A stretch of 64,000 bases of DNA from Candidatus Zixiibacteriota bacterium (lineage in GTDB: Bacteria > Zixibacteria > MSB-5A5 > GN15 > JACZUZ01): positions 1 to 64,000 of the forward strand of contig JAJRPM010000010.1 of NCBI GenBank assembly GCA_024280775.1, given 5' to 3'. Numbering within the stretch: the first letter of the stretch is position 1; the number at the start of each line of letters is the position of its first letter. Positions 4,904 through 35,678 of the stretch are shown here, one piece after another. The notes under the pieces were generated by a model. That model saw nothing but the letters and a program-made list of their open reading frames with translations, was not told where the DNA came from and made no database searches. The position numbers and the translations under genes were made by a program.

Positions 4904-5994
4904 TTGTTGATTAACCGCCTTTTCGAGCAAAGGCAATTGTAAGTATTCCGTCTGACAGGTGTGATTGTGAGAACTTCATTGCTTTCTTCAGATTGCTCCT
5001 AAATGCGCGAAATACCCTCAGACCGCAGGGCCGCATAACGGCGACGCTTACGAGCAGCAACCTCATCACCTATATACTGCAAACGTTTACCGGCAAGACA
5101 CACAAAGACATCATTTGCTTCGTCAAATACAAACTCCTCAACTGTGAAACGACCTTCTCTACTCAGAGTGTTTTGCGGTGGTGAAACCAGCCTCATACCA
5201 CGCTCTTCAAGTAATGCGCAATTCTTACCACTACCATATGCTCCATCAGCGCATAGAGCCTCAGGAACAAAACCTAAACGATCAATCACATCATCAAGTA
5301 TCAGTGACATGTCACTATCGTCAGGAGCGTTTGCTGGTTTAACAGTAACACCGACAATGACTCGCTTTTTACCATCGGCAATTGTGTCCTGTTTGTAACC
5401 CGGCTTCTTGGAGCCACCGGGAAAGCGACCAAAACGAGCATCCTTATCTGAGCTGTTGGACTTGTTCACTTTTTTTATGTCCAAATCTGCGCGGATAGTG
5501 GTAGCGTCTAGGTGTAACACTTTGCCACCCAACAAACCGCTCTTCTGACATTGCGCCACACTACGATTGAAGAGTTGATCGAATACATCGTCGCCCATTC
5601 GGTCAAGCGCACGAGAGAGCGTTGAATGATCCGGTAGCTCTTCATCCAGTCGATAGCCGATAAACCAGCGATAGGCCAGATTAACCTGAACTTCACGCAT
5701 TAGTTTACGCACCGAAGGAATATTCTCCAGCGCCTGAAGTGTAAACAGGCGCATTACAACTTCCGGATCAATCGACGGACGACCATTGTTCGGGCAATAC
5801 TTCTCGCTAAGAGCTTCACGAACAAAACTCAAATCCAAAACTCGGTCGATCTTACGCAGATGATGATCCTTGGGGACAAGCTGCTCCAAAGGAGGCAGAA
5901 GAGTCAACCCATTATCCAATCTATCTCGTTTGCCTTGCATAAATTAGAATAATTGACAACAATGAAAAAAATAAAGGACTTTATCAACAAGCCC
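4900..5994 (-). mobile_element. IS1182-like insertion sequence, internally deleted
   Basis: A perfect 12-bp terminal inverted repeat, GGGCTTGTTGAT, reads inward at 4900-4911 and, on the other strand, at 5983-5994. The element is about 1.1 kb, shorter than typical IS1182-family members (roughly 1.3-1.9 kb), because the transposase gene has lost a segment before its 3' end. I found no clear target-site duplication. The left end lies within the right arm of a palindromic repeat, consistent with the hairpin or palindrome targets reported for some IS1182-family elements (established for the family; inferred here). Confidence 0.7.
4999..5940 (-). pseudogene. IS1182-family transposase, truncated by internal deletion and frameshift
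   Basis: The 313-residue frame begins like a full IS1182 transposase. An N-terminal DUF772-type domain (residues about 10-120, SIDPEVVMRLFTLQ, then LPDHSTLSR) is followed by the DDE core with LDATTIRAD (first Asp) and ADGAYGSGKN (second Asp). The frame stops after RRRYAALRSEG, before the third catalytic residue. The usual C-terminus (NLKKAMKF) can be read just downstream in another frame, ending at a TAA inside the terminal repeat (4911-4913). About 100 or more residues including the catalytic Glu are therefore gone, and the element should not transpose by itself. Confidence 0.75.
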
Positions 5995-19880: not shown

Positions 19881-19976
19881 TCTCCTCTGAGAGTCGTATC
19901 AATAAATCGATGGATTGGCCCAATAATTGGCCACCAATAGTTCAATTATTAAGATAAGTATTTGATAAAGATTTCG

Positions 19977-21263
19977 ATGGATACCACGCATACACAAACA
20001 AAAGAAGCTACCACAAAAGAAGCTATGGATAACAAGCCGGGAGTTGCTTCGAGCAATTCCGACTCAAAGAATATCGACCCCAGTAAATGGGGAATTACTG
20101 AGCATGTAGCGACGTTGAAAGCTTCGATTATACGCGAGATGCTGAAGTATTCGCGGATGCCGGGGATAATTTCCTTTGCCGGTGGATTGCCTGCTCCGGA
20201 GATGTTTCCTCTGGAGGATTTGAAAGCGTCTTGCGATTCGATTATTGATAAGTATGGCGCTAATTCGATGCAATACTCGTTGTCGATGGGTATTGCGCCT
20301 TTGCGTGAGGCAATAGCCGAGCGCTCTAATAAGCGCGGGATAATTTCTTCAGCGGATAATATTCTGATAACATCAGGAGCCCAACAGGCGCTGGAAATGA
20401 TTGCCCGGGCATTTATCGATCCGGGTGATGTGATTATTACTGAGTATCCTACTTATGTAGGCGCTATTCAGGCGTTCAATTATCATCGCGCCAAATATGA
20501 ATTCGTGCCGCTCGATGATGATGGAATGCGGGTGGATTTGTTAGAAGAGAAAATCAAACAATCACATCCGAAATTGATTTATGTAGTCTCCACCTATCAG
20601 AACCCGAGTGGCAAGACGATGTCATTGGAGCGCAGGCATAAGTTGGTTGAGATTGCAACGCGCTATAATATTCCGATTGTCGATGATGATCCATATAGCG
20701 AGTTGCGATTCAATGGTGAACCGATTACTTCACTCAAGGCTCTAGGTGGCGATATTGTTATCACACTGGGGACGTTTTCAAAACTTTTGGCTCCGGGCTT
20801 GCGGATTGGTTGGATAAATGGTCCCAAAGAGGTTATGCCACTTTTTGAGCGTGTCAAACAGGTTAGTGATCTGCATGCCAATACTTTTGCGCAGTATATG
20901 ATTTATGATTATCTCGATCGCGGATTGCTGGAAGGGCACATTGATGATATTCGCGCCGATTATTCAGCGAAACGCGACCTGATGATTAAGGCTATTGAAG
21001 AACATTTCCCATCTTCAATAACCATTACCCATCCAGAGGGTGGCCTGTTTTTGTGGTGCGAATTGCCTGAAGGCTCTGATGCACACAAGTTACTTGAGTA
21101 TGCCGTCGAGGAAAAAGTCACCTATGTAATCGGTCAGGCTTTCCATCCCGATGGCGGTGGAAAGAATACATTCCGTCTGAATTTTTCGAATGCGAATCAT
21201 GAGACTATCGTTGAGGGTATCAAACGCTTAGGACGGATGTTCGCCAAGCGTCTGCCAAGTTGA
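19977..21263 (+). CDS. PLP-dependent aminotransferase (class I/II, LysN/aromatic type)
   Basis: I chose the ATG at 19977 over the TTG at 19962 (428 residues). The fold-type I motifs are FAGGLPAPEMFP, MQYSLSMGIAPLREAIAE, ITSGAQQALEMIARAFIDPGD, YVVSTYQNPSGKTM, VDDDPYSELRF and GTFSKLLAPGLRIGW with the PLP lysine. This pattern is typical of the broad-specificity 2-aminoadipate/aromatic/branched-chain transaminases. Its location just upstream of the aromatic cluster makes conversion of phenylpyruvate or hydroxyphenylpyruvate plausible; this is inference. It has its own terminator, so it is a separate transcription unit. Confidence 0.85.
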   Translation: MDTTHTQTKEATTKEAMDNKPGVASSNSDSKNIDPSKWGITEHVATLKASIIREMLKYSRMPGIISFAGGLPAPEMFPLEDLKASCDSIIDKYGANSMQYSLSMGIAPLREAIAERSNKRGIISSADNILITSGAQQALEMIARAFIDPGDVIITEYPTYVGAIQAFNYHRAKYEFVPLDDDGMRVDLLEEKIKQSHPKLIYVVSTYQNPSGKTMSLERRHKLVEIATRYNIPIVDDDPYSELRFNGEPITSLKALGGDIVITLGTFSKLLAPGLRIGWINGPKEVMPLFERVKQVSDLHANTFAQYMIYDYLDRGLLEGHIDDIRADYSAKRDLMIKAIEEHFPSSITITHPEGGLFLWCELPEGSDAHKLLEYAVEEKVTYVIGQAFHPDGGGKNTFRLNFSNANHETIVEGIKRLGRMFAKRLPS

Positions 21264-21334: not shown

Positions 21335-21430
21335 ATGAAGTACGCCGAGACCATAAACGCCGCAAGTGCAAAATTTGAAACCACAGGTTTTGAGTTTGTC
21401 CGCTATTACTGGTGGAGTATATCCATATAG
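21335..21430 (+). CDS. trpL: Aromatic (trp) operon leader peptide
   Basis: A 31-codon frame (ATG to TAG) contains Phe codons near its middle (TTT at codons 14, 19 and 21), then Arg-Tyr-Tyr-Trp-Trp. The tandem TGG codons are at 21410-21415, six codons before the stop. Adjacent Trp codons in a short peptide, followed at once by alternative hairpins and a terminator, are the hallmark of ribosome-mediated attenuation. Ribosome stalling at Trp (and possibly Tyr) codons would favour the antiterminator. The leader has no clear Shine-Dalgarno sequence. It is too short and atypical to have been called by length alone. Confidence 0.8.
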   Translation: MKYAETINAASAKFETTGFEFVRYYWWSISI

Positions 21431-21478
21431 GCAGGCGGCTATCTTTTACATTGTACTGAATTTGGATTTTGCCCGCCT
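21400..21478 (+). promoter_or_regulatory. Transcription attenuator (regions 1-3)
   Basis: Region 1 CCGC (21400-21403) can pair with region 2 GCGG (21435-21438). Region 2, as AGGCGG (21433-21438), can instead pair with CCGCCT (21473-21478), which overlaps the 5' arm of the terminator. A ribosome stalled on TGG-TGG (21410-21415) would cover region 1 and release region 2 to form the antiterminator. A ribosome reaching the stop at 21430 would mask region 2 and allow termination. Confidence 0.7.
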
Positions 21479-21498
21479 AGTGCGGGCTTTTTTGTTTT
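21471..21498 (+). terminator. Attenuator terminator of the aromatic operon
   Basis: The perfect stem GCCCGC/GCGGGC with loop CTAGT (21471-21487) is followed by TTTTTTGTTTT. It lies between the leader peptide and the first structural gene at 21614. Confidence 0.9.
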
Positions 21499-21613: not shown

Positions 21614-22447
21614 TTGAAATACACATTCACTAAATATGACGCAACAGGAAATGTCTTTTTGCTTTGTCGTTCAAACTCGTCATTGTCATCGGAGATACGA
21701 AAGGCTGTGTATAGCTCTCTTGCGCAGAAGATTTGCGCTCCTTTGACAGGAGCCGGAGCTGATGGAGTTTTGGTGTTGAGTCCGGCTAGAGGAGCCGATT
21801 TTACACTTGATGTATTCAATGCCGATGGGAGTTGGGCTGAGCGTTCAGGCAATGGTTTGCGCGCCGCCGCTGTGTTTGCACAGAATGAAATCTCAAGGCA
21901 AAAGAGCTGGAGAATCTCGTGCGGCGGCTCTGTGATTACTGCATCGGTATTGAAGAAAACTTCTCCGTGCGTCTGGCAGGTTTCTACTGAGGTTGGCTAT
22001 CCCGAAATTGAATCTGCGAAACTCAGCGAACTAGTAGCAGGATCCAAAAGCATCAAATACTTGCCAGTGACAATTGGAAACCCGCATGCGGTAATTCCAG
22101 TAAGAGCGTTTCCAAAAGACTGGGTTGAAATAGGCAGGCGCGTTGCAGTTAACCGGCGCTTTAGCGAAGGTGTAAATGTTGAGTTTGTCAAAGTTGTGAA
22201 CCGCCGCAGAGTAGAGATACGAATCTTCGAAAGAGGAGTAGGCCCGACCAGTTCTTCCGGCACAGGCGCCAGCGCCTCTGTTGCCGCTATGAAAGTTCTA
22301 GGGAAGGTATCAGGAAATGTAGCTGTTGATTCTATCGACTTGCAATCGACAAAGCAAAGACTCGATGTAAGTTGGATTGGACTGGACGAGCCGGTATGTG
22401 TCAAAGGGCCAGTCAAAGAGCTATTTACACTACAGGTGGCGCTATGA
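21614..22447 (+). CDS. Diaminopimelate epimerase-like protein with Ser/Ser active site
   Basis: A 277-residue protein of the DapF fold, starting at TTG. It has the family's two half-domain signatures: FNADGSWAERSGNGLRAAA and ERGVGPTSSSGTGASASVAA, with IGNPHAV and RRFSEGVNVEFV between them. In active DapF the motifs are CGNG and ACGTGAC; here both catalytic cysteines are serine. In known DapF enzymes the Cys pair acts as acid and base, so ordinary epimerisation is doubtful. It is the first gene after the trp attenuator and overlaps trpE (ATGA), so its role is probably linked to aromatic metabolism. Alternatives are an altered isomerase or a non-catalytic relative. Confidence 0.75.
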   Translation: MKYTFTKYDATGNVFLLCRSNSSLSSEIRKAVYSSLAQKICAPLTGAGADGVLVLSPARGADFTLDVFNADGSWAERSGNGLRAAAVFAQNEISRQKSWRISCGGSVITASVLKKTSPCVWQVSTEVGYPEIESAKLSELVAGSKSIKYLPVTIGNPHAVIPVRAFPKDWVEIGRRVAVNRRFSEGVNVEFVKVVNRRRVEIRIFERGVGPTSSSGTGASASVAAMKVLGKVSGNVAVDSIDLQSTKQRLDVSWIGLDEPVCVKGPVKELFTLQVAL

Positions 22448-23949
22448 TGTTCTCACAAGCAAGAGTTCGTGAACTTGCACGCGAGGGAAATGTGATACCT
22501 CTGTATGTACGTGTTCCGGCGGATTTGGACACTCCGGTTTCGACATTTCTGCGTTTGGCCAAAGGGAAGCGCTACTCGTTCTTGCTTGAGTCAATTGAAG
22601 GTGGCGAGAAATTGGCGCGCTATTCGTTTATCGCTTTTGATCCGTTCATGCGAGTTAAGGTGTTTCCTCCCGAGGAGAAGAGTAGCAACTCAAGAGAGCG
22701 TATAGTTGAGGTTGTTCGAGGTCGTAAACGTGAACGCGTTGTCGCAGAACCATTGGTGGTCGTTAATGAAATTCTAAACCGCTTTCGGCCGGTTAACATT
22801 GAGGGGATTCCTCGTTTTTCCGGTGGGGCGGTGGGGTATTTCGCTTATGACACTGCCGGTTGGGTGGACAAGTTTCCGGATGTAAACTCGGATGAAATAA
22901 ATATGCCCGATTGTATCTTGGGGTTCTACCAGTCTGTGGTTGTCTTTGATCATCTCAAGCAAGAGATTATTCTTATCTCGAACATACTCGTTGATGAAGA
23001 AAACAGCGGGAAAGCGCAGTCACTTAGCGCCAAATACACGTATGCAAAACAATGGCTAGTGGATACCCAGCAAAAACTACAATCAGCAGCGGTGAGGCGA
23101 ACGTCGGATTCCGAAAAACGAAAGCGCAAGCCGAAGTTGAAGTCGTTGACATCACGAAAAGAATTTGAACGTATAGTTCGCAAAGCGAAAGCGTATATCA
23201 AAGAGGGTGACATATTTCAGGTTGTGCTGTCAAGGCGCTGGAAAACCAAGTCTGATTTGCCGTCGATAGAAATTTACCGCAAGCTACGCCGTATCAATCC
23301 GTCTCCGTATATGTTTCTATTGCAATTTGGGGATGCCGCTGTCATTGGCTCATCGCCTGAGATGTTGGCGCGAATTGAAAATGAAACAATTGTTACACAT
23401 CCTATAGCGGGCACCAGGCCACGAGGCGCGAATGAAGCGCAGGATCGTCGCAACGAGGAATCTTTGTTACATGACGAAAAAGAGCTAGCCGAGCATACAA
23501 TGCTACTTGATCTAGGCAGGAATGATATTGGTCGTGTGTCCAAGTCAGGTTCGGTGCGTGTTATTAGGCAGATGGAAATCGAGCGCTATTCACATGTGAT
23601 GCATATGGTTTCTGCTGTTGAGGGTGATTTGACTCCGGGTCTGCCTGCCTTGGATGGTATGTTTAGTTGTTTCCCGGCGGGAACCGTAAGCGGAGCGCCT
23701 AAGATTAGGGCGATGGAGATAATTTCGGAACTTGAAGAATCGCGCCGGGGAGTCTATGCCGGGGCTATTGCATATTTGGATTTTTGGGGGAACCTGGATT
23801 CATGTATTGCGATTCGAACTATAGTCAAGCAAGGCGATGCCCTGTATTTGCAGGCTGGCGCTGGAATTGTCGCTGATTCGGTTCCGGCGCGTGAGTTTGA
23901 TGAGACAGCGCATAAGGTAGAGGCGCTTTTTGCAGCGCTTAACAGCTAA
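22444..23949 (+). CDS. trpE: Anthranilate synthase component I
   Basis: 501 residues from the ATG at 22444, which overlaps the preceding TGA (ATGA), indicating translational coupling. With TrpG it converts chorismate and glutamine to anthranilate. The N-terminal LLES motif (YSFLLESIEGGEKLARYSF) marks the tryptophan feedback site. The chorismate-binding domain shows IKEGDIFQVVLSRRW, NPSPYMFLL, HPIAGTRPRGA, DEKELAEHTMLLDLGRNDIGRV, FPAGTVSGAPKIRAMEII and GGNLDSCIAIRT-like motifs. The family's catalytic His and Glu motifs appear conserved. Confidence 0.96.
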   Translation: MMFSQARVRELAREGNVIPLYVRVPADLDTPVSTFLRLAKGKRYSFLLESIEGGEKLARYSFIAFDPFMRVKVFPPEEKSSNSRERIVEVVRGRKRERVVAEPLVVVNEILNRFRPVNIEGIPRFSGGAVGYFAYDTAGWVDKFPDVNSDEINMPDCILGFYQSVVVFDHLKQEIILISNILVDEENSGKAQSLSAKYTYAKQWLVDTQQKLQSAAVRRTSDSEKRKRKPKLKSLTSRKEFERIVRKAKAYIKEGDIFQVVLSRRWKTKSDLPSIEIYRKLRRINPSPYMFLLQFGDAAVIGSSPEMLARIENETIVTHPIAGTRPRGANEAQDRRNEESLLHDEKELAEHTMLLDLGRNDIGRVSKSGSVRVIRQMEIERYSHVMHMVSAVEGDLTPGLPALDGMFSCFPAGTVSGAPKIRAMEIISELEESRRGVYAGAIAYLDFWGNLDSCIAIRTIVKQGDALYLQAGAGIVADSVPAREFDETAHKVEALFAALNS

Positions 23950-23959
23950 GAGTGACAAT

Positions 23960-24544
23960 ATGATTTTGATGATTGATAACTACGACTCGTTCACTTACAA
24001 TCTGGTTCAGTACTTAGCTGAAATAGGGGCTGACTTACTTGTGGTGCGCAATGATGAGAAGACTTCTGAGGAGCTAATTGCTTTGCATCCTGAAGGCATC
24101 GTTGTATCACCCGGTCCGGGGCGGCCTGAAGGAGCCGGTGTATGTATGGAGTTGATTCAGAGAGTAGCTGGTAAAACACCGTTGCTTGGCGTGTGTTTGG
24201 GGCATCAATCAATCGCTCAGGTATTCGGCGGTACTATTGATTATGCGCCGACTTTGATGCATGGGAAAGTTTCACAGGTGACACATACTGATTCAACCTT
24301 GTTTAGTGGAATCGAGAATCCGTTTGTTGCTACCCGTTATCATTCATTGGTGGTAAAGCCGGATACTGTTCCTGATGAGTTTGAAGTAACTGCGCAGACT
24401 GAGGACGGTGTGGTAATGGCTCTTGAAAGTGATGCGTTGCGAATTTATGGAGTTCAGTTTCATCCGGAGTCAATTATGACCCCCTGCGGCAAGGGCATCC
24501 TGCGCAATTTCCTGCGAGTTGTAGGAGGTAGAGCTAGGGCATGA
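23960..24544 (+). CDS. trpG: Anthranilate synthase component II (glutamine amidotransferase)
   Basis: The ATG at 23960 (194 residues) gives the canonical start MILMIDNYDSFTYNLVQYL. The class I amidotransferase triad is visible: Cys in GVCLGHQSIAQVFGG, and His and Glu in GVQFHPESIMT. It supplies ammonia to TrpE. It begins 10 bp after trpE and overlaps trpD by ATGA. In many bacteria the same subunit also serves PabB; no pab genes are in the window. Confidence 0.95.
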   Translation: MILMIDNYDSFTYNLVQYLAEIGADLLVVRNDEKTSEELIALHPEGIVVSPGPGRPEGAGVCMELIQRVAGKTPLLGVCLGHQSIAQVFGGTIDYAPTLMHGKVSQVTHTDSTLFSGIENPFVATRYHSLVVKPDTVPDEFEVTAQTEDGVVMALESDALRIYGVQFHPESIMTPCGKGILRNFLRVVGGRARA

Positions 24545-25551
24545 AGATGATTCTCGAAATGTTAGGCGCCGGCAGTGACATGTCGCGCCGAGAGTCCAGC
24601 GAATTGATGATGGGCATAATTGGTAATGCTTATGATGATTTGCAAATCGCCGGGATGCTTATGGCGCTGAAAACCAAAGGTGAGACTGCTCAGGAAATTG
24701 CAGGCTTTGCGGATGCATTGCTTATTTGCGCAAACAAGATTGCTTTAGTTGATGACGGAGCAGTTGATTGCTGTGGAACTGGAGGAGATGGTTCGGGAAG
24801 TTTCAATATCTCTACTGCAGCGGCGATAGTTGCCGCAGGAGCCGGGGCCAAAGTCGCTAAGCATGGGAATCGTTCGGTGTCCTCCAAGTGCGGTTCTGCA
24901 GATTTGCTGGAGTATTGCGGTGTCAAAATCGATCCGGGGATTGATGCGGTTCGTGAGTGTTATGAAAAGCTGGGAATTTGTTTCATGTTTGCTCCGCGTT
25001 TTCATCCGGGAATTAAAATGGTGATGCCTGCCCGCAAGGCTTTGGGTGTGCGTACGATATTCAATATGCTCGGGCCGTTGTTGAATCCTGCTCGTGTGAC
25101 AAGACAGTTGCTGGGAGTTTACAACAAAGAAGTTATGCCGCTATTTGCTGAGACATTGCAGGAATTGGGAACGCGAAGAGCGTTGGTTGTGCATTCACAT
25201 GATGGTCTTGATGAAATATCAGCTTCGGCGCCAACCGATGTGCTTGAAATATGTGATGGTAAACTAGAGTCTTACACGAAGTCTTACACAGTGACACCGG
25301 AATCGCTTGGAGTCACTAAGGTTGATATATCCGAAATAGCTGGCGGAGACGCAAAGGCTAATCAGGCATTGCTGAGAAGTTTGCTCAATGGTCGCCAAAC
25401 TGGCGCGCGTCCTGCGACACTTGCGAATGCGGGCGCGGTGATATACTTGTCAGGTCTCTCTGAGAGTATCGCAGAGGGCGTAACATTGGCAAGAGAGGCT
25501 GTAGATTCGGGAGCCGCTCGTGAAGTGTTGAGTGAGTGGTTAAATCTTTGA
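24541..25551 (+). CDS. trpD: Anthranilate phosphoribosyltransferase
   Basis: A 336-residue enzyme of normal length that transfers the phosphoribosyl group from PRPP to anthranilate. The signature CGTGGDGSGSFNIST (PRPP binding), KHGNRSVSSKCGSADLLE and FAPRFHPGIKMVMPARKALGVRTIFNMLGPLLNP are intact. The start overlaps the trpG stop (ATGA). It is monofunctional, not fused to TrpG. Confidence 0.95.
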   Translation: MKMILEMLGAGSDMSRRESSELMMGIIGNAYDDLQIAGMLMALKTKGETAQEIAGFADALLICANKIALVDDGAVDCCGTGGDGSGSFNISTAAAIVAAGAGAKVAKHGNRSVSSKCGSADLLEYCGVKIDPGIDAVRECYEKLGICFMFAPRFHPGIKMVMPARKALGVRTIFNMLGPLLNPARVTRQLLGVYNKEVMPLFAETLQELGTRRALVVHSHDGLDEISASAPTDVLEICDGKLESYTKSYTVTPESLGVTKVDISEIAGGDAKANQALLRSLLNGRQTGARPATLANAGAVIYLSGLSESIAEGVTLAREAVDSGAAREVLSEWLNL

Positions 25552-25588: not shown

Positions 25589-26932
25589 ATGAATAAGAAT
25601 ATTGATTGTGACATAGAGCCGTCAGGAGGCTCAAAGACGACATCGGCGCCTGATAAGGTTGGTGACGGACTGAGTTGGTCGCAGCGCTATGCAGTGTCAC
25701 TGCGGTTGTTGAGCGCCAATGCTAAGCGCTATCTTATAGGAGCGTTCTTACTTGGTATTACGCAAGCGAATATCCAATTGCTCTTCAATTTGTATCTTCG
25801 CGAGCGAGACGTCACAGAGTCGATCATCGGAAGCATACTTTCTTCGCGGGCGACTGGCGCGGCGTTGATGGCGCTACCTGCGGGGTTTCTACTGTTACGG
25901 AGCAAGCTCAAGCCGGTATTGATTGCTTCTTCATTGGTTTTCAGTGTTTCTGTGGGATTGATGGCGATGTGGGAAAGTGTGGAGTCGCTGTGGATGTTTG
26001 CTATGGTTGGTGGTATGGCATTTACGTTTTACCGGGTTGCCGCCGCGCCTTTTTATATGCGTAACTCAACGCCGACTGAGCGTCCGATGTTGTTTTCGTT
26101 GGGCTTTGGGATGATGACACTCTCAGGCGCTGTGGGATCTCTGGGGGCAGGTTACTTGGTGACAGTGTTTCAGGATATCGGCGGATTCGAATCCGTTTTG
26201 GCGCATCGCTATGCATTGTATGTTGGAGTGAGCGCCGGTGTGTTTGCGACAATTCCATTCTCGTTTATTGTTTCTAAGAAGCCGAGTCGTAAGGAGCGAG
26301 AGTCAGTTCTTTCATGGGATAGAGTGCGTGGACGTCTTGGCGTTTACTTGAAATTGTTCATTCCGTATTTCCTGGTGGGACTGGGAGCTGGATTCATAAT
26401 TCCATTCTTGAATATCTATTTCCGCGACAGATTCCATCAAACCACAGACGAAATAGGTGTATACTATTTCGCTGTGTCAGTGGCAACGTTTTTGGGGACT
26501 ATGGCTGCTCCGGCTATTGTTCACAAATTGGGGAAAATCAAGACTGTAGTTGTTACCGAATTGTTGTCAATTCCGTTCATGTTGATATTGGCCTATACTG
26601 CAAGTATTGAATGGGCGGTGGCGGCGTTTTTGTTGCGTGCGGCTTTTATGAATATGGGTCAACCGGTTTCGACGAACTTCTCTATGGAAGTGGTCACTGA
26701 GAAAGAACAGGGTTTAGTTAATGCGCTTATGATGTTGGCCTGGACTGGTAGTTGGACTTTTTCAACCAGTTTTGGTGGAACACTTATTGAAAAGCATGGC
26801 TATGAGTTGCCAATGCTGATAACAATTGCATTGTATGTTTTGGCTTCAGTCTTGTACTACATCTTTTTCCGTAAGGCCGAAACGAAAGAGAATGGTCTCT
26901 ATGTGGTAAATTTTAGCGGGTTGAATTCATGA
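25589..26932 (+). CDS. MFS transporter embedded in the trp operon
   Basis: A 447-residue protein with a polar N-terminal tail and about 12 predicted membrane segments in two halves: YLIGAFLLGITQANIQLLFNLYL, GAALMALPAGFLLL and VLIASSLVFSVSVGLMAMW in the first, and LFIPYFLVGLGAGFIIPFLNIYF and MLILAYTASIEWAVAAFLL in the second. It is a major facilitator superfamily member, with no substrate-specific motif that I recognise. It overlaps trpC by ATGA, so it is translated as part of the operon. Import or export of an aromatic compound is the natural guess but is inference. Confidence 0.8.
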   Translation: MNKNIDCDIEPSGGSKTTSAPDKVGDGLSWSQRYAVSLRLLSANAKRYLIGAFLLGITQANIQLLFNLYLRERDVTESIIGSILSSRATGAALMALPAGFLLLRSKLKPVLIASSLVFSVSVGLMAMWESVESLWMFAMVGGMAFTFYRVAAAPFYMRNSTPTERPMLFSLGFGMMTLSGAVGSLGAGYLVTVFQDIGGFESVLAHRYALYVGVSAGVFATIPFSFIVSKKPSRKERESVLSWDRVRGRLGVYLKLFIPYFLVGLGAGFIIPFLNIYFRDRFHQTTDEIGVYYFAVSVATFLGTMAAPAIVHKLGKIKTVVVTELLSIPFMLILAYTASIEWAVAAFLLRAAFMNMGQPVSTNFSMEVVTEKEQGLVNALMMLAWTGSWTFSTSFGGTLIEKHGYELPMLITIALYVLASVLYYIFFRKAETKENGLYVVNFSGLNS

Positions 26933-27699
26933 ACCGACTGTTACGTGAAATAATTGAGGCGAAGCGCGGTGATTTACTTAACATCCTAGGGGAGTCTGTG
27001 GCGCCTGAAGTTCCGCTGGCTTCAATTCCATTTCGGAGCTCTTTGGTTAACACAAACTCGCCTGCGTTTATTTGTGAGATCAAAAAGGCGTCCCCTTCTG
27101 AGGGAGTGATTTGCGAAAACTTTGAACCTAAGAAAATAGCGCAGTCTTACCAAGCGGGAGGCGCGACGGCGCTTTCGGTTTTGACGGATGTTCGTTTTTT
27201 TCAAGGGGCTCCTGAGTATGTAGCTCTCGCGAAGGGCGCTAGCGGGTTGCCGGTGTTGTGTAAGGATTTCTTTATCGACCCCAGGCAGGTGTCATGGGCG
27301 AAAAGGCTGGGGGCTGATGCGGTGTTGTTGATAATGCGTGTTCTTTCAGACTCTCAAGCTCAGGAGATTTACACCGCCTGCTCGGAGGATGGTCTTGATG
27401 TATTGGTTGAGACTCATGATGAGGACGATGTTGAGCGGGCGTTGGTTTTGGGGGCTAATATGATAGGAGTTAACAACCGCGACTTAGATACATTTGAGGT
27501 GAGCCTTGATGTGTCAGAGCGCCTGAAGAGTTACATACCTGATTCGACGCTTGCTATTTCTGAATCAGGTATTAAGACCAATAGTGATGTGATGAGACTT
27601 AGAAAGTCCGGGTATGACACGTTTCTGGTGGGTAGCTCTCTAATGAGGGCTGATGACAAGGTTAATGCGTTGAAAGAATTGCGCGGGAACGCTGAGTGA
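26929..27699 (+). CDS. trpC: Indole-3-glycerol phosphate synthase
   Basis: A 256-residue TIM-barrel enzyme that cyclises carboxyphenylamino-deoxyribulose phosphate to indole glycerol phosphate. Conserved active-site blocks are CEIKKASPSEGVI (catalytic Lys), LSVLTDVRFFQGAPEY, VLCKDFFIDPRQV (catalytic Lys), EDGLDVLVETHDEDD (Glu), IGVNNRDLDTFEV (Asn) and ISESGIKTNSD (Glu-Ser). It overlaps the MFS gene upstream and trpF downstream. Confidence 0.95.
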   Translation: MNRLLREIIEAKRGDLLNILGESVAPEVPLASIPFRSSLVNTNSPAFICEIKKASPSEGVICENFEPKKIAQSYQAGGATALSVLTDVRFFQGAPEYVALAKGASGLPVLCKDFFIDPRQVSWAKRLGADAVLLIMRVLSDSQAQEIYTACSEDGLDVLVETHDEDDVERALVLGANMIGVNNRDLDTFEVSLDVSERLKSYIPDSTLAISESGIKTNSDVMRLRKSGYDTFLVGSSLMRADDKVNALKELRGNAE

Positions 27700-28340
27700 T
27701 GACCTTTCCTAGAACAAAAATATGCGGGATAACGCGTGTGCGTGACGCTCAACTAGCGGCAAAGCTTGGCGCGGACTTTTTGGGGTTGATTACCTACAGG
27801 AAGTCCCCAAGAGTAGTGACGTTGAACCTCGCTAAGAACATTATTGAATCAACCCCACCTACTGTTCAGTTTGTTTTGGTGTTCGTAAATGAAAGTGTAG
27901 ATGCTGTGATCTCACGTGCGAGACGGTTGAGGTGTTCGATAGTTCAATTACATGGCAAATACACCGCCGGTGATGTTTCGCGGATTCAGAAGGCGGGACT
28001 TCGGGTTATTTGCGCCTTTCAGATTGGCGTGCTTCAGATTGACGCAGTGACGGATTTGGCAAAAGCGAGATCGTCCCGGGCTGATTTTGTGTTGCTTGAT
28101 ACAAGAGACACTAGTGATAACGACGTTCATGGCGGCACAGGTATGTCTTTTGACTGGGAATTGTTGAAGCGGCCGACGAACAGGCCGCGCAACTTGATTC
28201 TTGCAGGTGGCTTGTCGGCGGCAAATTTCAAGAAGGCCGTCGAACTTGTTCAGCCGTTGGTTTTGGATTTCAATTCCGGTGTGGAGTCTTCGCCGGGGAT
28301 TAAGTCTGCGCTTAAACTCAAGAGGCTTTTTTCAGCGTAA
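27699..28340 (+). CDS. trpF: Phosphoribosylanthranilate isomerase
   Basis: The ATG at 27699 shares one base with the trpC stop (TGATG); a GTG at 27696 is the alternative. The 213-residue TIM barrel has KICGITRVRDAQLAAKLGADFLGLI with the catalytic Cys, VQLHGKYTAGDV, DFVLLDTRD with the catalytic Asp, and LAGGLSAANF then DFNSGVESSPGIKS at the phosphate site. It catalyses the Amadori rearrangement before TrpC. Confidence 0.94.
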   Translation: MTFPRTKICGITRVRDAQLAAKLGADFLGLITYRKSPRVVTLNLAKNIIESTPPTVQFVLVFVNESVDAVISRARRLRCSIVQLHGKYTAGDVSRIQKAGLRVICAFQIGVLQIDAVTDLAKARSSRADFVLLDTRDTSDNDVHGGTGMSFDWELLKRPTNRPRNLILAGGLSAANFKKAVELVQPLVLDFNSGVESSPGIKSALKLKRLFSA

Positions 28341-28359
28341 AAGAAATGGAGACGACTAA

Positions 28360-29577
28360 GTGGCGAATAAATCACAGCCGGATAGAGATGGTCGCTTCGG
28401 GGAGTATGGTGGAAGGTTTGTTCCTGAAACTGTCGTTTTCGCTTTGGAGGAATTGACGAGAGCCTACAAGGTTGCTCGCGGCGAAAAAGAATTCAAGAAG
28501 CGGTTTTCGGATTTGCTCCGGGACTATGTAGGTCGTCCCTCGCCGTTATACTTTGCACAGCGATTCTCTGATAAAGTTGGCGCTGATGTGTATCTGAAGC
28601 GCGAGGATTTGAATCACACTGGAGCGCATAAGATTAACAATTGCCTGGGGCAGGCGTTGCTTGCGATGCGCATGGGCAAAAAGCGGATTATCGCTGAAAC
28701 CGGAGCGGGGCAACATGGGCTGGCTACCGCCACTGTTTGTGCGTTGTTCGGGCTTGAGTGTGTGATTTATATGGGGGCGAAAGATGTTCAGAGGCAGGCG
28801 CCGAATGTGCGTAAGATTGAATTCCTTGGAGCCAAGGTTGTCCCGGTTACGAGCGGCGCTCAGACTCTTAAGGACGCAACCAATGAGGCGATGCGTGACT
28901 GGGTGACGAATATTGAGACGACATTTTACATCATTGGCTCTGCTGTCGGGCCGCACCCGTATCCGATGATGGTTCGTGATTTTCAAAGTATCATCGGCAA
29001 AGAAGCGCGCCGACAAGCTCTGGGGCGTTTGGGGACACTGCCGGATTATGTGGTTGCTTGTGTTGGAGGCGGTTCAAATGCTATCGGTATTATGAACGCT
29101 TTCTTGCGTGATACGAAAGTGGAACTGATAGGAGTTGAGGCTGGAGGATATGGACTCTCTAGTGGTATGCATAGCGCCTCATTGACTAAAGGCAGGCCGG
29201 GAGTTTTGCACGGCTCTTATAGCTACCTTCTCTTTGATAATGAGGGACAGGTAATATTGCCGCATTCTATTTCAGCGGGGCTGGATTATCCGGGAGTCGG
29301 GCCGGAGCATTCGCATCTTCGGGATACTGGCCGGGTTGTTTATCGCTCGGTGACCGATAAACAGGCGCTGACGGCATTCAAGGCTCTTTCGTTATGCGAG
29401 GGAATCATTCCGGCGCTGGAGAGCTCGCACGCTCTCGCATATTTGATGGTCGGCAAAGAGTTCAAGAGCCGAGACAAAAACAAGGCCGGGAAGAAGCGGC
29501 CTAGTGTGATACTATGTCTTTCGGGTCGGGGCGATAAGGATATGGACATAGTTGAAGATGCGCAGGGGAAGGTTTGA
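28360..29577 (+). CDS. trpB: Tryptophan synthase beta chain
   Basis: 405 residues from a GTG start with an upstream GGAG. It condenses indole and serine using [18 protein letters not shown] opens the protein. The PLP lysine is in [18 protein letters not shown], with [20 protein letters not shown], the phosphate-binding GGGSNAIGI, and the C-terminal [11 protein letters not shown]. This is the canonical TrpB1 type that pairs with TrpA, encoded directly downstream. Confidence 0.97.
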
Positions 29578-29581
29578 GGAT

Positions 29582-30400
29582 ATGACTATTTCAATTGCGC
29601 ACAAGTTCAAGTTATTGAAAACGTCTGGTCGTAAGGCGCTAATCCCGTTTTTCACCGCGGGTTATCCGTCATTGGCGGAAACTGAGAAGCTGGCGTTGAC
29701 CGCTGTTTCTGCTGGCGCTGATGTACTTGAGATTGGGATGCCATTTAGCGATCCTCTAGCGGACGGTCCGGCAATACAGGTTTCCAGTTTTGAAGCCCTG
29801 AAGTCGGGATTGAAGATGAAGGATACTTTTTCTTTGGTCGAACGTATCGCAGGCAAGACTGGAACGCCTATTGCGTTGATGGGTTATTACAATCCGATAT
29901 TGGCTCAGGGAATTTCGAAATTTGTACGCTCGGCGAAATCTGCCGGGGTTAGCGGGTTGATTATCCCGGACCTGCCCCCTGAAGAAGCTGGCGAATTGCG
30001 TGATATTGCCCGCGACGCGCAAATGGGACTTTCGTTTTTGGTGGCGCCTACTACTGGCGAAAAGCGCTATGCGACTATAGCGAAGGCCTCCTCTGCGTTT
30101 GTCTATGCGGTTACGGTCGCGGGTGTTACAGGCGCAAGAACCACTTTCGCTACTCGAACCGATGACTATTTACGCTCAGTTCGAAAGGCGATATCCAAGC
30201 CGTTGGTTGCCGGTTTCGGGATATCGGATGGAGTCACGGCGAAAAAGATGGCGCTCCGGGTTGATGGAGTTGTGGTGGGTTCGGCGTTTATTGATTTGAT
30301 GCGCAAGAACACTCGGGCAACGGCCAGGGCTAGAGTTGGCGCCTTGGTTGAGGAGATTAGGAAATCGATAGATTCACTGGATTCTGGTAGGAATAGTTGA
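29582..30400 (+). CDS. trpA: Tryptophan synthase alpha chain
   Basis: I chose the ATG at 29582, 4 bp after the trpB stop and preceded by GGTTTGAGGA (272 residues). The alpha subunit cleaves indole glycerol phosphate. Active-site Glu and Asp are in ADVLEIGMPFSDPLADGP; LIIPDLPPEEAGEL, YAVTVAGVTGAR and the phosphate-binding GFGISD and VVGSAFIDLM are present. It ends the tryptophan-specific section of the cluster. Confidence 0.95.
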   Translation: MTISIAHKFKLLKTSGRKALIPFFTAGYPSLAETEKLALTAVSAGADVLEIGMPFSDPLADGPAIQVSSFEALKSGLKMKDTFSLVERIAGKTGTPIALMGYYNPILAQGISKFVRSAKSAGVSGLIIPDLPPEEAGELRDIARDAQMGLSFLVAPTTGEKRYATIAKASSAFVYAVTVAGVTGARTTFATRTDDYLRSVRKAISKPLVAGFGISDGVTAKKMALRVDGVVVGSAFIDLMRKNTRATARARVGALVEEIRKSIDSLDSGRNS

Positions 30401-30853: not shown

Positions 30854-31897
30854 ATGATAATAGTAATGAACGCCACAGCGACGACTGAGAATATTCAGGC
30901 GGTTGTCGAGCGACTAACTGAACAGGGTTTTGATATACATAAATCCACAGGCGCCACCCATACAGTTTTGGGCGTGGTAGGTGGCGCTGGGGCTGTGGAT
31001 CCTCGGAATTACGAATTGCTGGACGGAGTCGGCGAAGTTGTTCGTATTAGCGAGCCATACAAGCTCGCTGGAAGATTGTTCAGAAAAGAAGACACTGTCA
31101 TCGATATTCGCGGTGTAAAGATCGGCGGGAATGAAATAGTTCTGATGGCCGGGCCTTGTTCGGTTGAGTCTCGTAGCGGGATTCGCGAGGCGGCGAAATT
31201 TGTTAAGCGATCCGGGGCCAAGGTTTTGCGCGGCGGGGCATTCAAGCCGCGAAGCTCTCCGTATTCATTTCAAGGCCTGGGTGTTGAGGGGCTTAAGTAT
31301 ATGCGTGAGGCCGCCGATGAAAACGGATTGTTGGTTATTTCTGAAATCATGGATCGGATGGATTTGCCTACGGCGATGAAGTATATCGATATCATTCAGG
31401 TGGGCGCGCGGAATATGCAGAATTACACTTTGTTGCGCGAATTGGGGAATATGCCCAAGCCGGTTTTGCTGAAACGCGGGATGTCGGCAACAATTAAGGA
31501 GCTTTTAATGTCCGCGGAATATATTATGGCTGGCGGGAATCACGAGGTGATACTATGCGAGCGTGGAATTCGGACATTCGAAAGTTACACGAGAAACACG
31601 ATGGATATTTCGGCTATTCCGATTCTCAAGAGTCTGTCACATTTGCCGGTGATTGCCGACCCAAGTCATGGCACCGGTATTCGTGATAAGGTGACGCCGA
31701 TGGCTCGCGCCTCGGTGGCCGCCGGAGCCGATGGTCTACTGATTGAGGCCCATCAGGACCCGGACCATGCGCTATCTGACGGAGCGCAGTCACTATATCC
31801 TGATCAGTTGCAAGAATTAGTGGAGCAGTTGCGAATTATTTCCAAAGCGGTGAATCGGACGATAGCGCCTGAGCCAGAGCGGATTAATGTGAGCTAA
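30854..31897 (+). CDS. aroF: DAHP synthase, type I-beta, copy 1
   Basis: A 347-residue enzyme making 3-deoxy-D-arabino-heptulosonate 7-phosphate from PEP and erythrose 4-phosphate, the first step of the shikimate pathway. Residues 1-75 form the N-terminal ferredoxin-like regulatory domain (MIIVMNATATTENIQAVVERL). The barrel follows with AGPCSVESR, RGGAFKPRSSPYSFQGLG, IIQVGARNMQNYTLL, KRGMSATIKE, CERGIRTFESYTRNT and IADPSHGTGIRD. A second copy lies at 34665. It overlaps argS by one base. Confidence 0.95.
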   Translation: MIIVMNATATTENIQAVVERLTEQGFDIHKSTGATHTVLGVVGGAGAVDPRNYELLDGVGEVVRISEPYKLAGRLFRKEDTVIDIRGVKIGGNEIVLMAGPCSVESRSGIREAAKFVKRSGAKVLRGGAFKPRSSPYSFQGLGVEGLKYMREAADENGLLVISEIMDRMDLPTAMKYIDIIQVGARNMQNYTLLRELGNMPKPVLLKRGMSATIKELLMSAEYIMAGGNHEVILCERGIRTFESYTRNTMDISAIPILKSLSHLPVIADPSHGTGIRDKVTPMARASVAAGADGLLIEAHQDPDHALSDGAQSLYPDQLQELVEQLRIISKAVNRTIAPEPERINVS

Positions 31898-33738
31898 TGA
31901 GTACCATGACCAAATCGATTTCAGAGAATACAGAGGCAACAACATTTGCCAGATTTCAATCCGAGTTTGCTGAAGCTGTTTCGGGCGCATTGCAAAAGGC
32001 CTATGGAGAGTCAAGCGCTGTTGCATTGGAAGCTGAGTTGCTGTCATTTGAGCATGTAGTCTCGCAGATTGAGCGACCCAAAAAGTCGGAGTTTGGCGAT
32101 TTGGCGTTTCCTTTGTTTCCTTATGTAAAACTCGTAAAAAAAGCGCCGAAAGCTGTATTTGATGATATTAAGTCGGGGATGGAGCTATCTGCTGAAGTTG
32201 GCGAGGTGACATTCGCTGGTGGCTATCTCAATATCAAACTGAGTTCTCATGGAGTGGCGCAAGCTCTTGCCAAGGAAGTTCTTTCTGCCCCGCAACGATT
32301 CGGACAATCTACGATTGGCGCCGGTAAGCGAGTCTTAGTTGAATTCTCTTCTCCCAACATCGCGAAGCCTTTTGGAATCGGTCATTTGCGTACTACGGTT
32401 ATCGGGGCGAGTTTGAATCGCATCTTCGGGTTCCTGGGATATGACACTACTAGCATCAACTACCTCGGTGACTGGGGTACGCAGTTTGGTAAGATGATTG
32501 TGGCGTACCAGAAATGGGACGGAGAGAATGCGCTTAAGGAAAACGCTATCAAAGGCGCCTTGGCGCTATATGTGCGTTTTCATAAAGAGGAAGAGACTGA
32601 CCCGTCACTATCAGAGGCGGCTCGTCTGGCTTTCAAAAAGCTTGAAGACGGCGACGCCGAGATGGTCAAGCTTTGGGAGATGTTCAAGGATGTTTCCTGG
32701 GCCGAGTTTAAGCGGGTGTATGACATACTGGGGATAGATTTTGACTTGATTACCGGTGAGTCATTCCTGAATGACAAAATGGATTCTGCGATTGCGCGTT
32801 TAGAAGCCGCGGGGCTTACATCAGAGTCACGAGGAGCTTTGGTTGTCGATTTGGAGGAGTTCAATTTGCCGCCATGTTTGTTGCGAAAACAGGATGGCGC
32901 GACTTTGTATGCTACTCGTGATATTGCAGGTTTGATGTACCGCTGGGAGACTTATCATTTTCAGGAGTCACTATATGTTGTAGGTTCTGCACAGGCGGAT
33001 CATTTCAAGCAGGTGTTCAAGGTGATTGAATTACTTGAGGACGCAGAAAAGACAGCTCCTGATGAGCGAATGACTGGCAAAGTTAAGCACATTCCTTTTG
33101 GTTGGGTAAAGTTTGAAGATCAGGCATTGAAGACTCGCGCCGGTCATGTGATTTATCTCGATGATGTTTTACAAAAAGCAATTGCGCTGGCCGAAGAGAA
33201 GATTCGTGAAAAGAACTCTGAATTGCCGGAGCTTGAGAAAGTGGCCAACCGAATTGGAGTTGGAGCAATTGTCTTTAGCCAACTTTCGGTGCGTAAGCAA
33301 AAAGATGTGAACTTTACTTGGGAAGGCGCTCTTAGTTTCGAGGGCGAAACCGGGCCGTATTTGCAATATACGCATGCGCGACTTAGCTCATTGTTGCGCA
33401 AGTACGGTCGTGAGTTGCCGGACGTCGCTTCGCTGGACTTTGGTGTGCTTGAGGATTCGGTGACACATCAGTTGGTAGTGACACTTTCAAGATTTCCATC
33501 TGTAGTTGAGCTTGCCGCGAAAGAGTATGAGCCGTTCTTGATTTCGTCATATCTGCTGGAGTTGACGTCATTGTTCAATTCATTCTATCAGCGTCGTGAC
33601 GATGATGGCAGAATAGTTAAGATACTTTCTGATGACGTTGCTTTGACAGATGCGCTAATGGCTGTGGTAAGTATGACCAAGACGACTATTGCCTCGGGAC
33701 TGGATTTGTTGGGTGTTGAAGCCCCGGAAGAAATGTAG
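31897..33738 (+). CDS. argS: Arginyl-tRNA synthetase
   Basis: A 613-residue class I synthetase. The N-terminal Arg-specific domain (residues about 20-130) is followed by the catalytic core with the HIGH-like motif in SSPNIAKPFGIGHLRTT, NYLGDWGTQFG, YATRDIAGLMYR and VGSAQADHFKQVF. The C-terminal anticodon-binding helical domain carries YLQYTHARLSSLLRK. The ATG shares a base with the DAHP synthase stop (TAATG), so it is genuinely inside the aromatic operon, an unusual place for argS. Confidence 0.95.
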   Translation: MSTMTKSISENTEATTFARFQSEFAEAVSGALQKAYGESSAVALEAELLSFEHVVSQIERPKKSEFGDLAFPLFPYVKLVKKAPKAVFDDIKSGMELSAEVGEVTFAGGYLNIKLSSHGVAQALAKEVLSAPQRFGQSTIGAGKRVLVEFSSPNIAKPFGIGHLRTTVIGASLNRIFGFLGYDTTSINYLGDWGTQFGKMIVAYQKWDGENALKENAIKGALALYVRFHKEEETDPSLSEAARLAFKKLEDGDAEMVKLWEMFKDVSWAEFKRVYDILGIDFDLITGESFLNDKMDSAIARLEAAGLTSESRGALVVDLEEFNLPPCLLRKQDGATLYATRDIAGLMYRWETYHFQESLYVVGSAQADHFKQVFKVIELLEDAEKTAPDERMTGKVKHIPFGWVKFEDQALKTRAGHVIYLDDVLQKAIALAEEKIREKNSELPELEKVANRIGVGAIVFSQLSVRKQKDVNFTWEGALSFEGETGPYLQYTHARLSSLLRKYGRELPDVASLDFGVLEDSVTHQLVVTLSRFPSVVELAAKEYEPFLISSYLLELTSLFNSFYQRRDDDGRIVKILSDDVALTDALMAVVSMTKTTIASGLDLLGVEAPEEM

Positions 33739-33741
33739 CTG

Positions 33742-34677
33742 ATGGCGAGATACGTTAAATCTACCAAAGGAACTGGACTAACCGGCGGAAGCAGTAAGGC
33801 CCTAGTGAGGAAGCGTAAAGTTTCTTTGCGTCAAGCTAGTGTTCGGTCTATTGGTATTTGCGGGGTCGGGCTGATTGGTGGCTCTATTGCTGAGCGCCTG
33901 AAAAGCAAGTGTTCAGCTTTGAAGATTGTTGGACATGATAGAAAGCCTGTTCTTAGAACCGCTCTTTCGCAAAAGGTAATTGATAGTGTTGCAACTCCAA
34001 TTGAAATGTTAGGTGATTGCGATTTGATAGTTCTATCGGCGAACCCGTCGACTAACCAGACTATACTCCGCGCTCTAAGTAGGCGCAAAACCGAATCGGC
34101 TCCATTGATAATCGATACAGGTTCTACCCAAAGCGGGATTGCAGAGTTGGCTGATTCACTAAAGTGGAACAATCAGGCGTGTTTTGTCGCAGGGCACCCG
34201 ATGGCCGGTAGAGAAATACAGGGAATAGAGAGCAGGCTACAGAATCTTTTCGAAGAGCATCCGTTTTTCTTTGACAGGTCTGTTGCTCTGAACTCACAGC
34301 AAAGAACAATTCTGGATTGGTTTACCGGAGCGCTTGGTTCATTCACGATGTACGTTGACAATCAGGCGCATGACGAAGTAATGACGGACATTTCACACAT
34401 ACCTCAGTTGCTCTCGACAATCATGGGGGGCTTTGTAAGTCACTATGATAAACAGACGATCCACTTGGCCGGCACAGGTTTGCAATCAATGATTCGTCTT
34501 GGTGGCTCGCCATACAGTAACTGGCGGGATGTCTTTGAGGAAAACAGCGAGCGCCTGTGCGAGCGTCTGGATGTTTTGATTAGCGATTTGTCTCTTGCGC
34601 GTGAAAGAATTCAAGCTGGCGAATCATTGCAGGATAGTTTTAAGAAAGCCAAAAGGGGTTATTCATGCTTGTGGTAA
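33742..34677 (+). CDS. tyrA: Prephenate/arogenate dehydrogenase
   Basis: A 311-residue NAD(P)-dependent enzyme of tyrosine synthesis. After a 35-residue basic extension comes the Rossmann motif ICGVGLIGGSIAERL; then LIVLSANPSTNQ, IIDTGSTQSGI, FVAGHPMAGREIQGI, ISHIPQLLSTIMGG with the catalytic His, and the C-terminal helical dimerisation domain. No ACT or mutase domain is fused; the mutase is encoded separately upstream. It overlaps the second DAHP synthase gene by 13 nt. Confidence 0.92.
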   Translation: MARYVKSTKGTGLTGGSSKALVRKRKVSLRQASVRSIGICGVGLIGGSIAERLKSKCSALKIVGHDRKPVLRTALSQKVIDSVATPIEMLGDCDLIVLSANPSTNQTILRALSRRKTESAPLIIDTGSTQSGIAELADSLKWNNQACFVAGHPMAGREIQGIESRLQNLFEEHPFFFDRSVALNSQQRTILDWFTGALGSFTMYVDNQAHDEVMTDISHIPQLLSTIMGGFVSHYDKQTIHLAGTGLQSMIRLGGSPYSNWRDVFEENSERLCERLDVLISDLSLARERIQAGESLQDSFKKAKRGYSCLW

Positions 34678-35678
34678 TGAAATCCAGCGCATCTGTTGAA
34701 ATGGTTGATGCGGTAGTTAAGGCTGTTGCCGATATGGGCCTCAAGGCGCATCCGATTCCCGGGGCCAATCGCACCGCGATTGGAATCACTGGCAACAAGG
34801 CGCAAGTCAATGACTCCCAACTACGAGCTTTGGCTGGAGTTGAAGACTTGGTGCATGTTACTGCGCCATACAAGTTGGTCGGTAGGGATTTCCATCCGCA
34901 GAGCAGTGAAGTTGTAATCGACGATGTAGTAATCGGCGGCAAAGAAATAGTGTTAATGGGCGGACCCTGTTCGGTTGAACCCTTGGAGATTACACTAGAG
35001 ATAGCCAAAGCTGTGAAGAACGCCGGTGGTAAAGTATTTCGCGGCGGCGCATTCAAACCGCGAACTTCGCCGTATTCTTTCCAGGGCTTGGGAGAAGAGG
35101 GGCTCAAGATATTGGCCCAAGTGCGTCAGGAGACGGGGCTGAAGATAATCACTGAGGCGATTGACCCTGAGAATCTCAAATTGGTTGCGGAGTACACAGA
35201 TATTATTCAGATTGGCGCGCGTAATATGCAGAATTTTTCTTTGTTAAAGGCCGCCGGTAAGTCTGATAAGGCGGTGATGATAAAACGTGGTATGTCCAGC
35301 ACTGTTGATGAGTTGCTGATGGCCGCTGAGTATGTGCTGGCTGGCGGTAATGAGCGAGTGATATTGTGTGAGCGTGGGGTCAGGACTTTTGCGGCGCATA
35401 CACGTAATACTTTGGACCTGTCGGCAATACCATATGTCAAAGCCAGGAGTCATCTGCCGATAATTGCAGATCCTAGTCATGGCACAGGTGTCAGGGAGAT
35501 GGTTGCGGCGCTTTCGCGCGCCTCTATTGCCGTTGGCGCTGATGGATTGATTCTTGAGACTCACATTCAACCTGACAAAGCGCTCTCTGATGCGTTCCAG
35601 ACTATCACTACAGAAGAGTTCAGCTCTGTTGCGAAAGAATCTGCAGAGATTGCGCACATCATGGGACGAAAACTATAG
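34665..35678 (+). CDS. aroF: DAHP synthase, type I-beta, copy 2
   Basis: A 337-residue paralogue of the enzyme at 30854, with the same architecture: N-terminal regulatory domain (MLVVMKSSASVEMVDAVVKAV) and barrel motifs GGPCSVEP, RGGAFKPRTSPYSFQGLG, IIQIGARNMQNFSLL, KRGMSSTVDELL and DPSHGTGVREM. All active-site blocks are intact, so both copies should work. The regulatory domains differ much more than the barrels, which suggests different effectors (inference). It overlaps tyrA. Confidence 0.94.
   Translation: MLVVMKSSASVEMVDAVVKAVADMGLKAHPIPGANRTAIGITGNKAQVNDSQLRALAGVEDLVHVTAPYKLVGRDFHPQSSEVVIDDVVIGGKEIVLMGGPCSVEPLEITLEIAKAVKNAGGKVFRGGAFKPRTSPYSFQGLGEEGLKILAQVRQETGLKIITEAIDPENLKLVAEYTDIIQIGARNMQNFSLLKAAGKSDKAVMIKRGMSSTVDELLMAAEYVLAGGNERVILCERGVRTFAAHTRNTLDLSAIPYVKARSHLPIIADPSHGTGVREMVAALSRASIAVGADGLILETHIQPDKALSDAFQTITTEEFSSVAKESAEIAHIMGRKL

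What the first reader, a model, noticed from the sequence alone, without database searches (positions are those of the whole stretch)
21614..22447. DapF-fold protein with both catalytic cysteines replaced by serine, first gene of the trp operon
The DapF signatures are intact apart from the two catalytic residues: SGNG instead of CGNG, and SSGTGAS instead of ACGTGAC. Losing both in parallel while keeping the surrounding motifs suggests selection for another chemistry or a binding role, not decay. The gene lies directly behind the trp attenuator and shares ATGA with trpE, so its level follows tryptophan supply. A DapF homologue has no known place in aromatic synthesis. PhzF, another member of this fold, acts on an anthranilate-related compound without cysteines, which makes an aromatic substrate thinkable.
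Basis: partly seen in the sequence, partly recalled or inferred. Interest (0 to 1): 0.8.

Follow-up and report, generated by a model that had tools for sequence, protein, structure and literature searches.

The report
Cysteine-free DapF orthologue heading trp operon
A gene that looks like the cell-wall enzyme DapF carries serines in place of both catalytic cysteines; it is the genome's only DapF, is swapped only between cysteine and serine across a whole phylum that lacks the usual route to DapF's substrate, and so makes it testable whether this enzyme class can work with serine.

Summary
ORF 21614-22447 is a DapF orthologue (TIGR00652, 167 bits against a 115 cut-off) with Ser78 and Ser215 at both catalytic Cys positions. 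It lies behind a tryptophan leader peptide and terminator and overlaps trpE.

It is not a spare paralogue. It is the only DapF in the genome, and the locus (aminotransferase-dapF-[trp]-MFS-argS) recurs across the phylum. In 82 phylum sequences the two positions are only ever Cys or Ser (SS 55, CS 14, CC 10, SC 3), with nested Ser-to-Cys reversals. The DAP-contacting residues Asn11, Asn64, Asn190, Glu208 and Arg209 are invariant, and dN/dS is about 0.16-0.19 in Ser/Ser pairs. That argues for a working enzyme with a DAP-like substrate, and against decay or an aromatic (PhzF-like) substrate.

The phylum has no known DAP route: dapB 0/80 genomes, dapA over cut-off 0/29, ddh over cut-off 0/31. Yet MurE keeps the DAP motif DNPR. 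Two Acidobacteriaceae genomes that do have dapB carry a Ser/Ser protein as their sole DapF, beside LdcA and Mpl.

Best reading: a serine-variant DapF-type epimerase acting on a DAP-like cell-wall diamino acid. Activity is untested.

The parts
21335..21430 (+). trp leader peptide MKYAETINAASAKFETTGFEFVRYYWWSISI* (tandem Trp codons)
   Evidence: similar SYWW / SYFWW leaders upstream of the gene in L115 and L117
21471..21493 (+). intrinsic-terminator-like hairpin and T-run of the attenuator
   Evidence: GCCCGCCTAGTGCGGGCTTTTTT
21614..22447 (+). DapF orthologue with Ser/Ser at the two catalytic Cys positions
   Evidence: TIGR00652 167 bits, Pfam DAP_epimerase; AF2 model pLDDT 95; Foldseek best DapF
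21845..21847 (+). codon TCA = Ser78, replaces catalytic Cys73 (H. influenzae numbering); N-terminus of helix 79-92
22256..22258 (+). codon TCC = Ser215, replaces catalytic Cys217; N-terminus of helix 216-228
19962..21263 (+). PLP aminotransferase of the LysN / PH0207 / KAT-II type, conserved upstream neighbour of dapF
   Evidence: same neighbour in f1-f5, f9, f10, f14, f15, f17, f18
22444..23949 (+). trpE (TIGR00564 540 bits), overlaps dapF by ATGA
23960..24544 (+). trpG
   Evidence: ORF list and synteny
24541..25551 (+). trpD
25589..26932 (+). MFS transporter inside the operon, conserved next to dapF when trp genes are absent
26929..30400 (+). trpC, trpF, trpB, trpA
31897..33738 (+). argS, conserved downstream end of the dapF locus

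Best explanation
The gene is the vertically inherited dapF of this phylum. Its product most likely still performs a DapF-type reaction (stereo-inversion, or at least reversible alpha-proton exchange) on a DAP-like L-alpha-amino diacid used in the cell wall (DAP itself or an isostere such as lanthionine), with serine hydroxyls in place of one or both catalytic thiols at the N-termini of the two opposed central helices. Shown: orthology, single copy, Cys/Ser-only variation, invariant substrate residues, purifying selection, DAP-type MurE, absence of dapA/dapB/ddh, Trp-attenuated transcription unit. Inferred: catalysis by serine, the identity of the substrate, and the link to peptidoglycan. The position ahead of trpE follows an old locus (aminotransferase-dapF-MFS-argS) into which trp genes are fitted in some families; it would couple expression to tryptophan supply but does not imply an aromatic substrate.
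For: Single DapF in own genome and 92 of 98 phylum genomes carry DapF. 82 phylum sequences: SS 55, CS 14, CC 10, SC 3, no other residue; Asn11, Asn64, Asn75, Asn190, Glu208, Arg209 82/82, Asn157 81/82. Tree of 93 with the two columns masked: at least 8 state changes, with Cys regained inside the Ser/Ser clade in L085 and L101. dN/dS 0.16-0.19 in Ser/Ser pairs against 0.13 in a Cys/Cys pair. MurE DNPR in 29 of 30 genomes. Two Acidobacteriaceae genomes have dapB, in one of them next to lysC and dapA, and only a Ser/Ser DapF, in line with LdcA and Mpl. Precedent for Ser as acid/base in the same fold: Ser/Cys 4-hydroxyproline epimerase B9JQV3 (PMC4113996).
Against: No known DAP synthesis in the phylum: dapB 0 of 80, dapA over cut-off 0 of 29, Ddh over cut-off 0 of 31, so the substrate's source is unknown. 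Cys-to-Ser mutants of the related HisR are greatly impaired (PMC11602996), and Ser is a poor base for an alpha-proton. All four genomes of family f16 lack DapF, so it is dispensable in one lineage. The proline racemase superfamily rule for catalytic Ser (an Asn three residues on, PMC4113996) is not met in SGNG.
Confidence: 0.45

Rival explanations
1. The protein kept the DapF fold and amino-acid pocket but now does another reaction needing only one or no thiol base (isomerisation, dehydration, racemisation of another amino acid), as PrpF, t3HypD, PhzF or HisR do in this fold.
For: No DAP route in the phylum; Fusobacterium likewise lacks DAP synthesis and its 'DapF' is a histidine racemase (PMC11602996); Ser/Thr and Cys/Thr pairs give dehydratases in the proline racemase superfamily (PMC4113996); constant neighbourhood of an aminotransferase and aromatic genes.
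Against: Residues that hold the second carboxylate and amine of DAP are invariant in 82/82 sequences, whereas the HisR pocket has no basic residue; Cys/Cys, Cys/Ser and Ser/Ser orthologues share one locus, which would require all to have changed function alike.
Confidence: 0.25
2. A non-catalytic DapF: the fold is retained as a ligand sensor or as a protein partner, as E. coli DapF binds and activates the mRNA pyrophosphohydrolase RppH.
For: Ser mutants of this fold hardly turn over; DapF-RppH interaction is established in E. coli (PMC4227774; 6d13 among structural hits).
Against: A binder would not need the two positions to stay Cys or Ser and revert to Cys; active-site Asn and Arg are invariant; RppH in these genomes was not tested.
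Confidence: 0.15
3. Racemase or isomerase of an aromatic or anthranilate-pathway compound.
For: First gene of the trp operon, under a Trp attenuator; also next to trp in f4, f7, f18.
Against: trpEGDCFBA and the shikimate genes seen in the window leave no obvious missing step; same gene without trp genes in f2, f3, f5; DAP head-group residues invariant; no PhzF match in Pfam.
Confidence: 0.08
4. Decaying remnant of dapF after loss of the DAP pathway.
For: dapA and dapB are absent; f16 has lost the gene; the window protein is less conserved than its neighbours (55% identity with the sister genome against 78-80% for trpE and the aminotransferase).
Against: dN/dS well below 1, intact frames in nearly all of about 90 genomes, pocket residues invariant.
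Confidence: 0.03

Closest known systems
Diaminopimelate epimerase DapF (TIGR00652; PDB 8qzy, 9mro, 1gqz)
   Same: Fold (TM 0.83-0.87), whole length, Asn11/64/157/190, Glu208, Arg209, glycine motifs
   Different: Both catalytic Cys are Ser; no DAP pathway in the genome; trp-operon setting
HisR of Fusobacterium nucleatum (annotated DapF; PDB 9cr1)
   Same: DapF homologue in a bacterium without DAP synthesis
   Different: HisR has Cys/Cys and a pocket without basic residues; only 16% identity here
Ser/Cys 4-hydroxyproline epimerase B9JQV3 and Ser/Thr t3HypD B9K4G4 (proline racemase superfamily)
   Same: Ser replaces a catalytic Cys in the same fold in an active enzyme (PMC4113996)
   Different: Different superfamily branch, proline-type substrates, one Cys left in the epimerase, Asn at Ser+3
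PhzF
   Same: Same overall fold, no catalytic cysteines
   Different: 11-12% identity, no Pfam match, a glutamate acid/base in PhzF (own knowledge), aromatic substrate
H. influenzae DapF C73S and C217S mutants (PDB 2q9h, 2q9j)
   Same: Same substitutions made in the laboratory, one at a time
   Different: Here natural, paired and conserved

Membership tests
DapF (TIGR00652 equivalog) | HMM score over curated cut-off | tested here: met
   167.2 against 114.65 bits
DapF (TIGR00652 equivalog) | Two catalytic cysteines (Cys73, Cys217) | tested here: not met
   Ser78 and Ser215
DapF (TIGR00652 equivalog) | DAP-binding Asn11, Asn64, Asn157, Asn190, Glu208, Arg209 | tested here: met
   all present in the window protein; 82/82 in the phylum, Asn157 81/82
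DapF (TIGR00652 equivalog) | DAP pathway in the same genome | tested here: not met
   no dapB, no dapA, no Ddh over cut-off; MurE with DNPR present
DapF (TIGR00652 equivalog) | Epimerises LL-DAP and meso-DAP | not testable with these tools
   needs purified protein
PhzF family | Sequence match to the family model | tested here: not met
   Pfam finds only DAP_epimerase at E up to 1
HisR/CntK histidine racemase | Cys/Cys pair | tested here: not met
   Ser/Ser
HisR/CntK histidine racemase | Pocket without basic residue | tested here: not met
   Arg207 (Arg209 equivalent) conserved; HisR statement from PMC11602996
trp attenuator | Leader peptide with tandem Trp codons before a terminator | tested here: met

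The most novel reading that the evidence does not exclude
A whole bacterial phylum builds a DAP-like cell-wall diamino acid by a route without DapA, DapB or Ddh, whose last steps are the conserved LysN-type aminotransferase and a DapF that works with serine in place of the catalytic thiols.
Probability: 0.22. Interest if true: 0.88.

Novelty: new variant of a known kind. Interest (0 to 1): 0.62.

Why it matters
DapF is the textbook two-thiol epimerase and a drug target; its Cys-to-Ser mutants are used as impaired forms for crystallography. Here nature has made the swap repeatedly, in one or both positions, and kept it under selection. This gives ready-made orthologue series (Cys/Cys, Cys/Ser, Ser/Cys, Ser/Ser) to test whether a serine pair can drive alpha-proton transfer. 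It also flags a phylum with DAP-type MurE and DapF but no known way to make DAP, so its wall chemistry and the source of that residue are open, testable questions. Automatic annotation would call these proteins DapF without noticing either problem.

Tried and rejected
A second Cys/Cys dapF in the genome: none found. Chance or decay: rejected by conservation and dN/dS. PhzF-like or aromatic function: no sequence support. Serines tied to trpE neighbourhood: not so. Reading the LysA-like hits as diaminopimelate decarboxylase: all are below cut-off, and one (L169) sits between SpeH-like and spermidine-synthase-like genes. meso-DAP dehydrogenase bypass: the weak hit at C9:53733 lies in a Gfo/Idh-like gene. 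DapL: no hit over the TIGR03542 cut-off; the strongest aminotransferase paralogues sit with NlpC/P60 and dipeptide-epimerase-like genes. Literature searches for natural Ser DapF, a DapB-less DAP route and Acidobacteriaceae wall DAP found nothing direct. The phylum's name was not determined.

Full report
Observation. The ORF at 21614-22447 is real and is a full-length DapF homologue: TIGR00652 167.2 bits over a cut-off of 114.65, both halves matching Pfam DAP_epimerase. Aligned with solved DapF (9mro) it has Ser at both catalytic positions, Ser78 (TCA) and Ser215 (TCC). It overlaps trpE by ATGA. The attenuator call is good: a 31-residue leader peptide ending ...VRYYWWSISI at 21335-21430, then a GC hairpin with a T-run at 21471-21493; YWW or YFWW leaders recur at the same place in L115 (same genus) and L117 (same family).

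Copy number and locus. It is the only DapF in the 97.5% complete genome. In the phylum (98 genomes of 85% completeness or more) 92 carry DapF. Fetched regions show one recurring locus: LysN/PH0207-type aminotransferase - dapF - MFS - argS, followed by aro genes in several of the loci read, with trpEGD before and trpCFBA after the MFS gene in families f1, part of f4 and f18, and trp directly behind dapF in f7. So the gene is an orthologue in a fixed place, and trp is an optional neighbour.

Variation at the catalytic positions. In 82 phylum sequences the pair is SS 55, CS 14, CC 10, SC 3; nothing else occurs. The states follow families: f1-f5 and f18 Ser/Ser, f7 Ser/Cys, f9-f13 Cys/Ser, f6, f8, f14 and f15 Cys/Cys, f17 mixed; there is one CS exception in f3 and one SC exception in f4. 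On a tree built without these two columns at least eight changes of state are needed, and L085 and L101 have regained one Cys inside the Ser/Ser clade. Of 80 outside relatives from the genome collection, 78 are Cys/Cys and two, both Acidobacteriaceae, are Ser/Ser (its count also includes one Cys/Cys reference). Asn11, Asn64, Asn75, Asn190, Glu208 and Arg209 are invariant in the phylum, Asn157 all but once. dN/dS is 0.16-0.19 in Ser/Ser pairs and 0.13 in the Cys/Cys pair; the window pair's dS (2.2) is near saturation, so that value is rough. This is selection for a hydroxyl or thiol at two places around an unchanged amino-acid pocket.

Structure. An AlphaFold2 model (pLDDT 95.3, pTM 0.91) puts both serines at the N-termini of the two central helices, the canonical place of the cysteines. 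Foldseek ranks DapF first (8qzy E 7e-27; 9mro TM 0.87), PhzF at 7e-16 with 11% identity and HisR at 3e-13.

Pathway context. The phylum has no known way to make DAP: dapB 0 of 80 genomes, dapA over cut-off 0 of 29, with two weaker family members, meso-DAP dehydrogenase over cut-off 0 of 31, DapL (TIGR03542) and LysA over cut-off 0 of 31. The same searches hit most control genomes over cut-off for dapA and dapB. Yet MurE carries DNPR in 29 of 30 genomes, the motif that holds the free carboxylate of DAP (PMC3829189), with GKGAE in place of GKGHE in most of those read. DapF and MurE thus both look made for a diamino-dicarboxylic acid whose source is unknown. Fusobacterium is a precedent for lanthionine instead of DAP, but there the DapF homologue proved to be a histidine racemase with a non-basic pocket (PMC11602996).

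Independent case. Two Acidobacteriaceae MAGs have a single DapF each, Ser/Ser, followed by an LdcA-type carboxypeptidase and Mpl (446 bits in L005, over cut-off), and both have dapB behind lysC, with dapA beside it in G061. There a Ser/Ser DapF is the only visible candidate for meso-DAP supply and sits among DAP-peptide recycling genes. DapL, Ddh and LysA were not tested there, so this is suggestive, not proof.

Mechanism. Most likely (0.45) these are active variants in which serine replaces one or both thiols. Ser/Cys epimerases are known in the proline racemase superfamily (PMC4113996), though their catalytic Ser has an Asn partner at +3 that SGNG lacks, and Ser mutants of HisR are greatly impaired. 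The rivals are a changed reaction, a non-catalytic role such as the RppH partnership of E. coli DapF (PMC4227774), an aromatic substrate, and decay, in falling order.

Verdict. It is a new variant of a known kind, with a sharp experimental test.

Noticed in passing
G000:C16:30974-32347 (L153, L252) and MurE of 29 other genomes: MurE keeps DNPR in 29 of 30 genomes (L146 reads DNSR) but has GKGAE (also GKGIE, GKGDE) where GKGHE is usual, in a phylum without dapA or dapB.
   Followed up: partly
G099-G102 (family f16): All four genomes of family f16 lack any DapF, although 92-94% complete.
   Followed up: no
window 25589-26932: An MFS transporter sits inside the trp operon between trpD and trpC, and stays next to dapF at loci without trp genes.
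   Followed up: partly
window 30854-31897 and 34665-35678: Two DAHP synthase genes a few kilobases apart in the same aromatic cluster.
   Followed up: no
L118 (G003:C209:4689-4949): A fragment of a second, Cys-type DapF end (ACGTGAC) on a 5 kb contig of a 68% complete genome; could be foreign DNA in the bin.
   Followed up: no
L173-L178: In several genomes of the order an aspartate/DapL-like aminotransferase sits beside NlpC/P60 and dipeptide-epimerase-like genes, a possible peptidoglycan-recycling group, about 30 kb from dapF.
   Followed up: partly
window 4999-5940: IS-type transposase gene near the window's start.
   Followed up: no
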